Positions 3,923 to 7,321 of a DNA stretch of 11,784 bases are shown one piece after another. The notes beneath the pieces were generated by a model. It saw nothing but the letters and a program-made list of their open reading frames with translations, had not been told where the DNA came from and did not search any database. Where the stretch lies: NCBI GenBank assembly GCA_027322565.1, contig DAHVRG010000201.1:1-11784 (forward strand), read 5' to 3'. Position 1 is the stretch's first letter; each line of letters opens with the position of its first letter. Origin of the DNA: Georgenia sp. Lineage in GTDB: Bacteria > Actinomycetota > Actinomycetes > Actinomycetales > Actinomycetaceae. A program made the position numbers and the translations under genes.

Positions 3923-3926
<4 letters not shown>

Positions 3927-4993
3927 GCACTCCGATATTCGGCCTGTCCGCCTACTTCCGGCACCTCGACGTCGCCGAGCAGGTGTGTGCCACCGCTCGG
4001 GAGGACGGCTTCAGCATGCTCTTCGGCTCGTTGCACGTGCCGGAGGAGCCGGAGGGCGACTTCCGGGCCCGGATGCAGCGGGTCGGTGCACTGGCGCGGG
4101 AGGCCGGGCTCGGGCTTGTCGTCGACATCTCCGGTGCCTCCCTCGCTGCCGTCGGCCTGGACGTCACCACGGCCGGGACCATGCGGGACTGGGGTGTCAC
4201 CGCCCTGCGGGTCGACTACGGGCTGAGCGACGAGGAGATCGTCGCGCTCTCCCGGTCGATCCCGATCTGGTTCAACGCCTCGACCGCCACCCCGGGCGAC
4301 TTCGAGCGCCTCGTGGGGATGGGGATGCGGACGGAGGGCGTGGGAATCTCGCACAACTTCTACCCCAAGCCGTTCACCGGGCTGTCGGACGAGTTCCTCC
4401 TCGCCCAGACCCGGATGTTCCACGAGCTCGGCCTCACCGTGCAGGCCTGGGTGCCGGGCGACGGCGTGCGCCGCATCCCGCTCGGCTTCGGGCTGCCGAC
4501 CCTGGAGCGCCACCGCGACACCCACCCGGTCGCCGCGGCCATCGACCTGCGCACGCTCGGTGTGGACGACGTCTTCGTCGGCGACCCATCGCTGTCCGAG
4601 CGTACCCGCCGGGCCTGGCGAGCATGGGCGCAGGAGGACGTCGTCGAGCTGGAGGTCGAGCTCACCGCCCCCGTGCCCGAGGAGGTGGCGGCCCGGCTCG
4701 CCGTCGTCGACCGCAACCGTACCGACGACGCCGCGGCGATGGTGCGGCTGGAGGGGGCCCGTTCCGCCCTCGCCGACGTCCCGGTCCCGCCCGCCGCGAC
4801 GGTCGGGCGCGCGTTCGGCTCGGTGACCGTCGACAACGACGCCGCCGGGCGCTACAAGGGTGAGATCGCGGTCCAGCGCCGCGACCTGCCCGCGGATGCG
4901 ACGGTCAACGTCGTCGGCCACGTCGTCGCCGCCGACCGTGACCTCGTCACGCGCATCGGCCCCGGCCGGCACGTCCGCCTCCGCCTCCGCTGA
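3923..4993 (+). CDS. mupG: MupG/DUF871 family 6-phospho-N-acetylmuramidase-like protein
   Basis: A 356-residue protein covering the whole DUF871 family. The N-terminal TIM-barrel part (about 4-235) has GLSAYF, a GFSMLFGSLHVPEE strand-loop at 29-42, IWFNASTATPGDF at 115-127, GISHNFYPKPFTGL at 141-154 and VPGD followed by LGFGLPTLERHR at 177-198. The C-terminal beta domain (about 240-356) has VDNDAAGRYKGEI and a VNVVGHV strand. MupG of Staphylococcus aureus, of this family, splits MurNAc-6-phosphate-GlcNAc imported by the MurP phosphotransferase system, feeding cell-wall recycling in the cytosol. There is no signal peptide here, which agrees with a cytosolic enzyme. GGAG at 3911-3914 is a good ribosome site for ATG 3923. 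Family members usually sit with PTS, murQ or murR genes; none are in this window. The family call is firm, the exact substrate less so. Confidence 0.88.
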
Positions 4994-5008
4994 CCCCGCC
5001 AGGCCGCA

Positions 5009-5117
5009 CCGACAGCCCACGTCCTCGGCGACAGCGCACGTTCCAGCGACAGCGCACTTTCCAGCGACAGCTCACTTCCTGGCGACAGTTCAGTTCCCGG
5101 CGAGAGCTGAGTTCTCA
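5009..5117 (+). repeat. Tandem array of an 18-bp repeat (array A)
   Basis: Five adjoining 18-bp units occupy 5028-5045, 5046-5063, 5064-5081, 5082-5099 and 5100-5117, preceded by one degenerate unit at 5009-5027 that is one base out of phase. The core is GCGACAGCTCACTTCC followed by two variable bases (mostly CA, TG or CG). Units 1-3 differ from one another at a few positions, and units 4 and 5 decay further (GCGACAGTTCAGTTCCCG, GCGAGAGCTGAGTTCTCA). The array starts 16 bp after the mupG stop and ends 22 bp before the convergent membrane-protein stop. Decay toward the far end suggests growth by slippage and then drift. The same unit recurs inverted at 5650-5703. I do not recognise it as a named repeat family. 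Confidence 0.9.
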
Positions 5118-5139
5118 CCCGCACGAAGCGCGAGCGCGG

Positions 5140-5550
5140 CTATGTACGGTCGGCGGTCTCCGCCTGCTCCGGCCGGAGGCGGGCGTTCGTCGTGAGCAAG
5201 GCCAGCACGACGGCGACCACGAGCAGCAGGCTGACGTCGCCCCAGAGGTGACCGCGATGATGAGGACTGGCAACGGACTGCACCGCCATGGTCGCCGCGT
5301 GCACAAGGCTGGACCACACAGTGAACCAGACGAGGGAGCGGTGTGCGCGCGGGTTCCTCGCTGCGACCAGCAGGAAGATCCCGAGCGTCGCGTACAGGCC
5401 GACGATCATCATGAAGTACTCCGACGCATACGGAGGCCCGGTGTGCCACTGCCACCCACCCGGCCAGACGACCGAGACCGGGTAGAGCAGGAGGAACAGG
5501 CCGCCGACCACGGCGAGGGCCGCCTGGAGGAGTCGGTACGCGGAAGGCAC
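5140..5550 (-). CDS. Small four-helix membrane protein (DUF6632-like)
   Basis: A 136-residue integral membrane protein with four predicted helices at about 8-29, 44-64, 71-92 and 103-121, with no signal-peptide cleavage site and a short charged tail. Conserved-looking features are YPVSVVWPGGWQW (23-35), GLYATLGIFLLVAARNPRAHRSL (51-73), WSSLVHAATMAVQSV (79-93) and HLWGDV (101-106). Together they resemble the uncharacterised DUF6632 family; I am recalling that match, not computing it. The frame stays open far upstream, but GTG at 5550-5548 is chosen because GGGAG (5561-5557) precedes it by 6 nt and a CATAAT box lies upstream; the extension would run through the repeats and antisense to the transporter. 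The function is unknown. The gene sits between two inverted repeat arrays. Confidence 0.72.
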   Translation of the reverse strand: MPSAYRLLQAALAVVGGLFLLLYPVSVVWPGGWQWHTGPPYASEYFMMIVGLYATLGIFLLVAARNPRAHRSLVWFTVWSSLVHAATMAVQSVASPHHRGHLWGDVSLLLVVAVVLALLTTNARLRPEQAETADRT

Positions 5551-5580
5551 GGGGAGCTCCCATCGCCGATGAGTGCGAGC

Positions 5581-5586
5581 ATTATG
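5581..5586 (-). promoter_or_regulatory. Probable -10 box for the small membrane protein gene
   Basis: On the minus strand CATAAT (5586-5581) is a rare AT-rich hexamer in this GC-rich window. Initiation about 7 nt downstream, near 5574, would give a 5' leader of about 24 nt holding the GGGAG ribosome site at 5561-5557 before GTG 5550. I see no clear -35 box. The position, just upstream of this gene and beyond the repeats, suggests it has its own promoter separate from the transporter upstream. Confidence 0.45.
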
Positions 5587-5649
5587 CGCCTGGCATCGAG
5601 TTTCCCGGGAGTGTCCCCATCGGGCATCGGGCAGAGACCGCGCTTCCGG

Positions 5650-5703
5650 TGGAGGTCGGGCTGTAGCCGGGAAGTGGGCTGTCGCCAGAAAGTGAGCTGT
5701 CGC
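5650..5703 (-). repeat. Three-unit array of the same 18-bp repeat, inverted (array B)
   Basis: Read on the minus strand, the units are GCGACAGCTCACTTTCTG (5703-5686), GCGACAGCCCACTTCCCG (5685-5668) and a degenerate GCTACAGCCCGACCTCCA (5667-5650). The first unit matches unit 3 of array A at 17 of 18 positions. The array begins 49 bp after the transporter stop and runs in the direction of that gene, just as array A follows mupG. It lies between the transporter and the promoter of the small membrane-protein gene. Confidence 0.85.
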
Positions 5704-5733
5704 GGTGACGCGGTTACGCGGTGACGCGGGCCG
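5702..5733. repeat. 8-bp-period short tandem repeat abutting array B
   Basis: Units GCGGTGAC (5702-5709), GCGGTTAC (5710-5717), GCGGTGAC (5718-5725) and a partial GCGGGCCG (5726-5733) follow directly on array B, sharing two bases with it. The 13-bp block CGCGGTGACGCGG therefore occurs twice with a 16-bp period. The repeat lies 19 bp past the transporter stop, in the 202-bp gap between the two minus-strand genes. No hairpin or T-tract is obvious. Confidence 0.7.
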
Positions 5734-5752
5734 GGCGAGGGTGCCGGGCGGG

Positions 5753-7321
5753 TCACGTGGTGACGACGAGCTGGACGAGAAGGATCTTGGCGATGATCCC
5801 GAGCGCGAACAGTGAGGCGTACCCGGACTCCACGCGGTCGTCGGGCAGCCGGTCGGTGGCGTAGGCGAGGATCGCCGGCTGCCCGATGAACCCTGCGACG
5901 GCCCCTGCCGTCCGAGCGGTGCTCTGCCCGAGCAGCCGGGCCGCCACGACGAGGCCGGCAGCGGCGATGAGGACGACGACGGCACCGACGAGCACCACGC
6001 GCAGACCCAGTGCGGTGAACGCCTGGGCGGCGAACGCCTGACCCGAGGCCAGCCCCGTCGCTCCGAGGAAGAGAAGCAGCCCGAGCTGACGCAGGGTGAG
6101 GTTCGCCGAGACCGGGAGCGTCCAGACGATCGGCCCTGTCCGGTCCACCCGCCCGAGAACCATCCCGACGACGAGCGGCCCGGCGGCCGAGCCCAGCGCG
6201 AACGCCACCCCGCCGGGCAGCGGCACCGTGAGCAGCCCGAGGAGGAGCCCGACGGCGATGCCGGTGCCCATCGACAGGGGGTCGACCTCGCTGACCTTGC
6301 GCTCGGAGTCGCCGAAGAGCTCGGACAGCTCGTTGAGGCGCCCGCGGGGGAAGACGACGCGGACGCGGTCGCCGAGCTGGAGGACGAGATCCTCGTGAGC
6401 CAGCATGTCCGTGTCGCCGCGGCGCACGCGGGTGACGATCCCGCCGAACCGGCCCGGGATGTCCAGGTCCCGTACCGTGCGCCCGGCGATCCGCGGGGCC
6501 GAGACGACGAAGCGGCGGAAGTGGACCACCGAGCGGTCGTGGGCGAGGTGCTCGTGCACCCGTCGCCCGAGGTGCTCGACGGCCCGCTCCACCGCAGGGC
6601 GGGTCCCGACGACGACCACCCGATCGCCCTCCCGCAGCTCCTCGTCCTCGCCGACGACCCGCGTGCGCCCGTCCCGCTCGAGGTAGGACAGCCGGATGCT
6701 GCCGTCGGCGTACCCCGGGATGTCGTGCATCGGACCAGGCCGCTCGACCTCCGCGCTGACGTCGATGAGCCCGATCCCCGCAGCCGGCTCCGGGTCGCGT
6801 GGCGAGGACCACGGCCGAGCGAGGACGAGCGAGACGACGACGATCGTCACGACGACGCCGACCGGGTAGGCCAGCGAGTAGCCCACGGCCGGCTCCCCGC
6901 TGTCGGCCGCCGTCGTCGCGGCCGCGAGAGCCGGCGTCGACGTCAGCGCGCCCGCGTACGAGCCACCGGCCAGCGTCGCCGGGACTGCGGCCCACCGCGC
7001 GACGAGCACGGCGGCGCCGGCGCCAACGGCGAGCACGACGACCGAAGCCGCCATGAGCGGCAGCTGGCTGCGCAGGTCACGGAAGAAGCTGTGCCCCGCC
7101 GCCAGCCCCACGGTGTAGACGAAGAGCGCCAGCCCCAGGCTCTGCACCAGCCCGAGCCCCTCGCCCAGCCGGGCGTCCAGCGCCCCGACGGCCAGCCCCA
7201 CGAACAGGGCACCGGCGGCGCCGAACCGCACTGGTCCGAAGGGCACCGCCCCGAGCAGCGTGCCCACCGCCACGACGAGCATGAGGGTGAGCAACGGGGA
7301 GGCGGCAAGCAGGTCGAGCAC
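5753..7321 (-). CDS. AspT/YidE-type (AAEx family) transporter with two RCK_C domains
   Basis: A 522-residue inner-membrane protein of the aspartate:alanine exchanger family layout. An N-terminal block of membrane helices (about 1-168) and a C-terminal block (about 348-522) are duplicated halves, separated by two cytosolic TrkA-C/RCK_C domains at about 178-258 (VVGEDEELREGDRVVVVGT) and 262-340 (LAHEDLVLQLGDRVRVVFP). Each half carries the family's glycine/proline re-entrant motif: GGSYAGALTSTPA (119-131) and AGAVAGFIGQPA (472-483). The family includes AspT; most YidE/YbjL-like members have no known substrate, so none is assigned. The GTG at 7321-7319 is preferred over an ATG 48 bp upstream because AGGGAG (7332-7327) lies 5 nt before it and the conserved protein begins there. 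That ribosome site touches the stop of the upstream phospholipase-like gene, so the two are probably co-transcribed. Confidence 0.87.
   Translation of the reverse strand: MLDLLAASPLLTLMLVVAVGTLLGAVPFGPVRFGAAGALFVGLAVGALDARLGEGLGLVQSLGLALFVYTVGLAAGHSFFRDLRSQLPLMAASVVVLAVGAGAAVLVARWAAVPATLAGGSYAGALTSTPALAAATTAADSGEPAVGYSLAYPVGVVVTIVVVSLVLARPWSSPRDPEPAAGIGLIDVSAEVERPGPMHDIPGYADGSIRLSYLERDGRTRVVGEDEELREGDRVVVVGTRPAVERAVEHLGRRVHEHLAHDRSVVHFRRFVVSAPRIAGRTVRDLDIPGRFGGIVTRVRRGDTDMLAHEDLVLQLGDRVRVVFPRGRLNELSELFGDSERKVSEVDPLSMGTGIAVGLLLGLLTVPLPGGVAFALGSAAGPLVVGMVLGRVDRTGPIVWTLPVSANLTLRQLGLLLFLGATGLASGQAFAAQAFTALGLRVVLVGAVVVLIAAAGLVVAARLLGQSTARTAGAVAGFIGQPAILAYATDRLPDDRVESGYASLFALGIIAKILLVQLVVTT

What the first reader, a model, noticed from the sequence alone, without database searches (positions are those of the whole stretch)
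5009..5117. 18-bp tandem repeat array directly after mupG
Six copies of a GCGACAGCTCACTTCC-type unit, five in exact 18-bp register, fill nearly all of the space between two convergent stops. The sequence is non-coding by position and clearly amplified, and units 4-5 are more decayed than 1-3. I do not recognise it as a known family. It could be a slippage-prone terminator substitute, a protein-binding array, or an intergenic repeat family spread across the genome.
Basis: partly seen in the sequence, partly recalled or inferred. Interest (0 to 1): 0.72.

Follow-up and report, generated by a model that had tools for sequence, protein, structure and literature searches.

The report
Genus-wide 18-bp intergenic repeat arrays
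The short DNA repeat behind one gene belongs to a large repeat family that sits at gene ends in this bacterial genus, often in pairs that face each other and with a different spelling in each species; it is probably a recognition site, but what reads it is unknown.

Summary
The array is real: six 18-bp units at 5010-5118. It is not a local accident. A second, opposite array (5670-5702) lies 558 bp on; between them is a DUF6632 gene that five congeners lack at this place. Dimers of the unit 18 bp apart number 120, 125, 333 and 673 in G000 (own), G001, G002 and G004, 4 and 1 in G003 and G005, and one hit in 207 other genomes of the family. The core is CGASAGCNSASTT plus a loose 5-bp linker: adjacent units differ at 4% of fixed core and 27% of linker positions (G004). 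Arrays lie near stop codons in either orientation and are scarce in divergent regions. Neighbouring arrays face each other (strict pattern 29 inward, 3 outward, 0 same-way; looser 19, 4, 4). Sites recur at orthologous places more than shuffled labels (7 of 67 groups, 3.2 expected, P=0.0075). No REP transposase family (PF01797) in six genomes. Best reading: a new REP/BIME-like family whose core is recognised by an unidentified strand-indifferent factor, serving as a gene-end boundary. Function is unproven; a selfish repeat is the main rival.

The parts
5010..5118 (+). Left array, six 18-bp units (the finding)
5670..5702 (-). Right array, two units, facing the left one, about 50 bp behind the transporter stop
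5140..5550 (-). DUF6632 gene (136 aa) between the two arrays; absent at this place in G001-G005
   Evidence: PF20337, E 6e-55
3923..4993 (+). mupG, left flanking gene (MupG_N, MupG_C)
   Evidence: 86-89% identical in G001-G005
5753..7321 (-). Asp-Al_Ex / TrkA_C transporter, right flanking gene (longest frame reaches 7369)

Best explanation
The window holds one locus of a genus-specific, REP/BIME-like family of interspersed repeats. SHOWN: the unit is 18 bp, with a constrained, non-palindromic 13-bp core CGASAGCNSASTT and a loose 5-bp linker; units stand singly, as tight inverted pairs, or as head-to-tail arrays of 2-15; arrays lie near stop codons and point either way; arrays within 3-4 kb of each other mostly face inward and enclose 0-2 called genes (once 5); each species has its own consensus although some sites are at orthologous places. 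INFERRED: the core is the recognition site of one sequence-specific factor that does not care about the direction of transcription; array length is set by slippage or unequal recombination; sequences are kept alike within a genome by copying or gene conversion. The likeliest job is a gene-end boundary, comparable to the BIME-2 clusters that bind DNA gyrase in E. coli (a topological sink or roadblock between transcription units). At the window, the DUF6632 gene came to lie between the two halves of a facing pair.
For: 18-bp dimers: 120/125/333/673 in G000/G001/G002/G004 against 3/3/0/23 for the reversed pattern, 4 and 1 in G003 and G005 (controls 0), one 2-mismatch hit in 207 genomes of other genera. 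In the first 700 kb of G004, 23 intergenic lag-18 arrays; every other lag from 10 to 30 gives 0-2. Adjacent units: fixed core 4.1% vs linker 27.4% mismatch in G004 (151 unit pairs, P=5e-54), 9.6% vs 26.7% in G000 (86 pairs, P=8e-15); at the two S positions C<->G makes 52 of 55 changes in G004 and 43 of 53 in G000. In tandem regions arrays are closer to the upstream stop than to the next start in 13 of 15 (G004) and 21 of 24 (G000), whichever way they point. Of 26 intergenic arrays in G004 one is in a divergent region, although these hold 27.9 of 74.3 kb. Neighbouring arrays, strict pattern: 29 inward, 3 outward, 0 same-way over G000, G002, G003 and G004. Units at orthologous regions in two or more species: 7 of 67 groups, 3.2 expected, P=0.0075; in front of G004 gene 391 in G000, G001, G002, G004 and G005, always pointing the same way.
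Against: No binding protein was identified and no binding shown. A selfish repeat recognised by its own mobilising enzyme would give the same constrained core. The inward rule is weaker with the looser pattern: 19 inward, 4 outward, 4 same-way in G001-G004. Partner arrays are no more alike than unrelated ones. Of 13 groups of orthologous regions with any unit, 6 have it in one species only; the 7 shared groups are 6 places, because two groups are parts of the region in front of gene 391. Lone arrays did not show clear faint partners. The measures rest on 700 kb of G004, 200-400 kb of G001-G003 and 41 G000 contigs, 40 of them picked because they hold units; genes come from my own simple caller.
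Confidence: 0.4

Rival explanations
1. Selfish or neutral repeat population. The unit spreads and is homogenised by an unidentified mobilising enzyme or by ectopic gene conversion, expands in place by slippage, and survives where it does least harm (behind stop codons). It has no job for the cell.
For: Species-specific consensus, avoidance of divergent regions, units in one array more alike than units of unrelated arrays (15.4 vs 14.3 of 18 in G004, 14.4 vs 14.2 in G000), many sites not shared.
Against: Sites shared between species beyond label shuffling (P=0.0075); inward pairing rule; no REP transposase family PF01797 in six genomes, though other enzymes were not excluded.
Confidence: 0.36
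2. Transcription terminators. The repeats end transcripts, as hairpins where two units face each other closely, or as Rho-dependent sites where arrays read C-rich.
For: Position behind stop codons; three tight inverted pairs in G003 and G001 fold at -50 to -69 kcal/mol; no hairpin-plus-T-run terminator found in window 4900-5850.
Against: No strand preference in tandem regions (8/7 and 14/10); G000 arrays show no special RNA fold.
Confidence: 0.14
3. Ends of a transposon with several transposase sites per end (IS21- or Tn7-like, recalled), moving one or two passenger genes with an enzyme supplied from elsewhere.
For: Facing arrays that enclose genes; DUF6632 present between arrays in G000 and absent at this place in five congeners.
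Against: Partners no more alike than unrelated arrays; enclosed genes are mostly ordinary chromosomal genes; the G002 copy of DUF6632 has no units within 1.5 kb; no PF00665 and no PF01695 in G000 (PF00665 was not searched in the congeners); no lag-18 array in the 14 loci with PF01695 hits.
Confidence: 0.06
4. Local slippage accident behind mupG.
For: None beyond the tandem form itself.
Against: 176 matches in the own genome against 6 in the control; three congeners with 125-673 dimers.
Confidence: 0.01

Closest known systems
BIMEs / REP clusters of enterobacteria
   Same: Many intergenic copies, alternating orientation, clusters; BIME-2 binds gyrase (passages of PMC6379681 and PMC2817692).
   Different: Unit not palindromic; head-to-tail 18-bp arrays; facing arrays up to a few kb apart with genes inside; other sequence.
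REPINs with RAYT transposase
   Same: Inverted doublets that can form hairpins; within-genome sequence families; some tandem clusters, the largest of four REPINs (passages of PMC3116915).
   Different: No PF01797 in six genomes; arrays repeat the single unit, not the doublet, up to 15 times.
GTAG- and CGTC-tagged REPs
   Same: Short intergenic repeats, facing dimers common; the CGTC type lacks a known transposase (passages of PMC3733652).
   Different: [quoted passage not shown] here they are the rule in G000, G002 and G004. No stem inside the unit.
Foldback elements (Galileo of Drosophila)
   Same: Long inverted ends made of internal repeats (start of abstract of PMC3573991 in the listing).
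   Different: Bacterial; no transposase seen; partner arrays not especially alike.

Membership tests
REPIN-RAYT | A Y1 tyrosine transposase (RAYT) in the genome | tested here: not met
   PF01797: 0 of 6 genomes; 5 of 14 control genomes positive. G000 is only 57% complete, the other five 99-100%.
REPIN-RAYT | Replicating unit is an inverted doublet forming a hairpin | tested here: inconclusive
   Three tight inverted pairs of G003 and G001 fold well, one of them outward-facing; in G000, 14 of 17 inward pairs are more than 150 bp apart.
REP | Unit itself is an imperfect palindrome | tested here: not met
   Core CGASAGCNSASTT differs from its reverse complement AASTSNGCTSTCG (read from the position table, by eye).
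REP / BIME | Many extragenic copies, few in promoter regions, neighbours in opposite orientation | tested here: met
BIME-2 | Bound and cleaved by DNA gyrase | not testable with these tools
   needs an experiment
Transposon with multi-site ends | The two ends share recent ancestry | tested here: not met
   Partner similarity 13.9 vs 14.3 for unrelated arrays in G004 and 13.8 vs 14.2 in G000; random pairs reach it in 91% and 89% of draws.
Transposon with multi-site ends | Ends travel with the cargo | tested here: not met
   One case only: DUF6632 of G002 has no units within 1.5 kb.
Rfam RNA families | Match above the gathering score | tested here: not met
   Window 4900-5800: one sub-threshold match, 19.2 of 47.4 bits, outside the arrays.

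The most novel reading that the evidence does not exclude
An orientation-coded boundary system of bacteria: facing arrays of a 13-bp core, read by an unknown polar DNA-binding protein whose preferred sequence has drifted from species to species, fence single genes or small transcription units into micro-domains, much as facing CTCF sites anchor loops in animals (that comparison is recalled). With the strict pattern no two neighbouring arrays within 3-4 kb point the same way and the three outward pairs are all closer than 150 bp and enclose no gene; with the looser pattern there are exceptions, 4 outward and 4 same-way of 27.
Probability: 0.1. Interest if true: 0.88.

Novelty: new variant of a known kind. 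Interest (0 to 1): 0.58.

Why it matters
It is a large, lineage-specific intergenic repeat family with a constrained core, species-specific consensus, partly conserved positions and an inward pairing rule, in genomes where the known REP transposase family was not found. That makes it testable what keeps dispersed arrays alike within a genome and what binds them. I met no description of it in the held open-access library: searches with repeat-family words (titles and abstract starts of the listed papers seen) and with five 14-base unit words (0 papers). Most subscription papers are not held.

Tried and rejected
Rfam: no family. IS21/rve: no PF00665 or PF01695 in G000; no lag-18 array in the 14 congener loci with PF01695 hits. 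RAYT: none in six genomes. Strand-specific terminator: see rivals. Phage origin: exact dimer pattern in 0 viral contigs. Mobile DUF6632 cassette: the G002 copy has no units nearby. Faint partners of lone arrays: inconclusive (opposite and facing were 9 of 39 weak hits around 11 lone arrays in G004 and 9 of 22 around 8 in G000). One search used a pattern with a wrong 20-bp step and is not used. One search stopped on a script error after its first pattern; its table (both 20, one side only 11 and 8, none 177) counts one place several times, so I rely on the grouped shuffles.

Full report
OBSERVATION. It fills about three quarters of the 146 bp between mupG (stop 4993) and the next gene's stop (5140). 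Units 4 and 5 are the closest to the own genome's consensus, not the most decayed. On the other strand, 558 bp further on, stands a second array of two units (5670-5702), about 50 bp behind the stop of the transporter gene.

SPREAD. In the own genome (2.17 Mb, 329 contigs, 57% complete) the core matches 176 times with up to 2 mismatches and the reversed control 6 times. I read 40 further contigs, all chosen because the first listed hits lay in them, and found mostly arrays of 2-7 units and some single ones. Two units 18 bp apart, up to 2 mismatches, in 213 genomes of the family (own included): 120 in G000, 125 in G001, 333 in G002, 4 in G003, 673 in G004, 1 in G005, and one hit in one of the other 207 (reversed controls 3, 3, 0, 0, 23, 0 in the six). 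So 18-bp arrays are abundant in four of six species of one genus. G003 has a longer-spaced version with core CGCCGAGCGCTGAGTTGTTAC (steps of about 30-36 bp) and a second version with CGGATTCC.

ANATOMY. In the first 700 kb of G004, 23 intergenic arrays have lag 18; no other lag from 10 to 30 gives more than 2. Between adjacent units the nine fixed core positions differ at 4.1% (G004, 24 arrays, 151 unit pairs) and 9.6% (G000, 28 arrays, 86 pairs), the five linker positions at 27.4% and 26.7%, the two S positions at 18% and 31%, mostly C<->G. Those arrays were found by lag alone and then phased by the core; arrays with a mean fit under 10 of 13 were left out and not counted, which favours the core somewhat. 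Units within one array are more alike (15.4 of 18 in G004, 14.4 in G000) than units of unrelated arrays (14.3 and 14.2); partners of a facing pair are not (13.9 and 13.8).

PLACE. Of 28 G004 arrays 26 are intergenic, 2 inside called genes, and 1 of the 26 is in a divergent region; divergent regions hold 27.9 of 74.3 kb of intergenic DNA. Of 52 G000 arrays 9 fell inside called genes, 2 in divergent regions and 9 lacked a called neighbour on one side. In tandem regions arrays point both ways about equally (8/7 in G004, 14/10 in G000) and lie nearer the upstream stop (13 of 15, 21 of 24; also 3 of 3 in G003 and 2 of 2 in G002). Neighbouring arrays (two or more units, or one exact unit) within 3 kb, in G000 4 kb, face inward 29 times, outward 3 times and same-way 0 times with the strict pattern; with the looser one, run on G001-G004 only, 19, 4 and 4. 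The 25 inward pairs of G004 and G000 enclose 29 called genes; 21 of these were scanned and 20 have a Pfam match, mostly ordinary chromosomal functions such as LepA, TruB, endonuclease III, a Crp-type regulator, RsmI-like methylase and exonuclease VII small subunit.

CONSERVATION OF SITES. In 67 groups of orthologous intergenic regions (185 members) 7 have units in two or more species; label shuffling within species gives 3.2 on average and reaches 7 in 0.75% of 2000 runs. Two of the 7 groups are parts of one place, the region in front of G004 gene 391. The fetched blocks were chosen around known arrays. In front of gene 391 the looser pattern counts 3 units in G000, 3 in G001, 10 in G002, 5 in G004, 1 in G005 and none in G003, in the same orientation, with different sequences in different species.

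THE WINDOW LOCUS. In G001-G005 mupG and the transporter are convergent neighbours 60-136 bp apart, without DUF6632. G005 has two units behind mupG by the looser pattern. G003 has in this gap an inverted pair, GCCGACAGCTGGATCCCGC and its reverse complement, that folds into a long hairpin; it shares the first half of the unit (CCGACAGC) but does not match the core pattern, so its kinship is likely, not proven. DUF6632 was found in 2 of 59 genomes searched, own included: G000 and G002; in G002 it lies elsewhere without units within 1.5 kb. So the gene was gained, or kept, between units that belong to the place rather than to the gene; the direction of change is inferred.

MECHANISM. A constrained core with a loose linker says that something recognises the core. 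The lack of a transcription-strand preference points to DNA rather than RNA. The nearest analogue is the BIME-2 cluster as gyrase site (passages of PMC6379681, and PMC2817692). Against a plain REPIN reading stand the missing PF01797 and the head-to-tail arrays of the single unit. I commit to a gene-end boundary bound by a strand-indifferent factor (0.40), with a selfish repeat close behind (0.36).

LIMITS. Genes come from a simple codon-usage caller that I wrote.

Noticed in passing
G000 contigs C23, C120, C134, C152, C175, C199, C255 (starts) and C27, C220, C172, C303 (ends); loci L052, L053, L063, L067, L068, L072, L073, L076, L077, L080, L087: Eleven of the 41 contigs read begin or end within about 100 bp of units; the arrays may break the assembly.
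   Followed up: no
L239 (G001) and L238 (G003), behind gene 389: A related unit TAACAACTCAGCTCTCG (in G001) overlaps the stop codon of the gene, so the repeat supplies the gene's end.
   Followed up: partly
G004 450-460 kb versus L238-L241: Gene 389 (RsmI-like) is inverted and a 163-aa gene is missing beside the arrays in G004, relative to G001, G002, G003 and G005; suggests rearrangement at array sites.
   Followed up: partly
G004 240.8-241.1 kb (L153): An eight-unit array stands where the other five species have a 105-108-aa gene between genes 191 and 192.
   Followed up: partly
window 5701-5729: A separate 8-bp repeat (CGCGGTGA, 3.6 copies) adjoins the right array.
   Followed up: no
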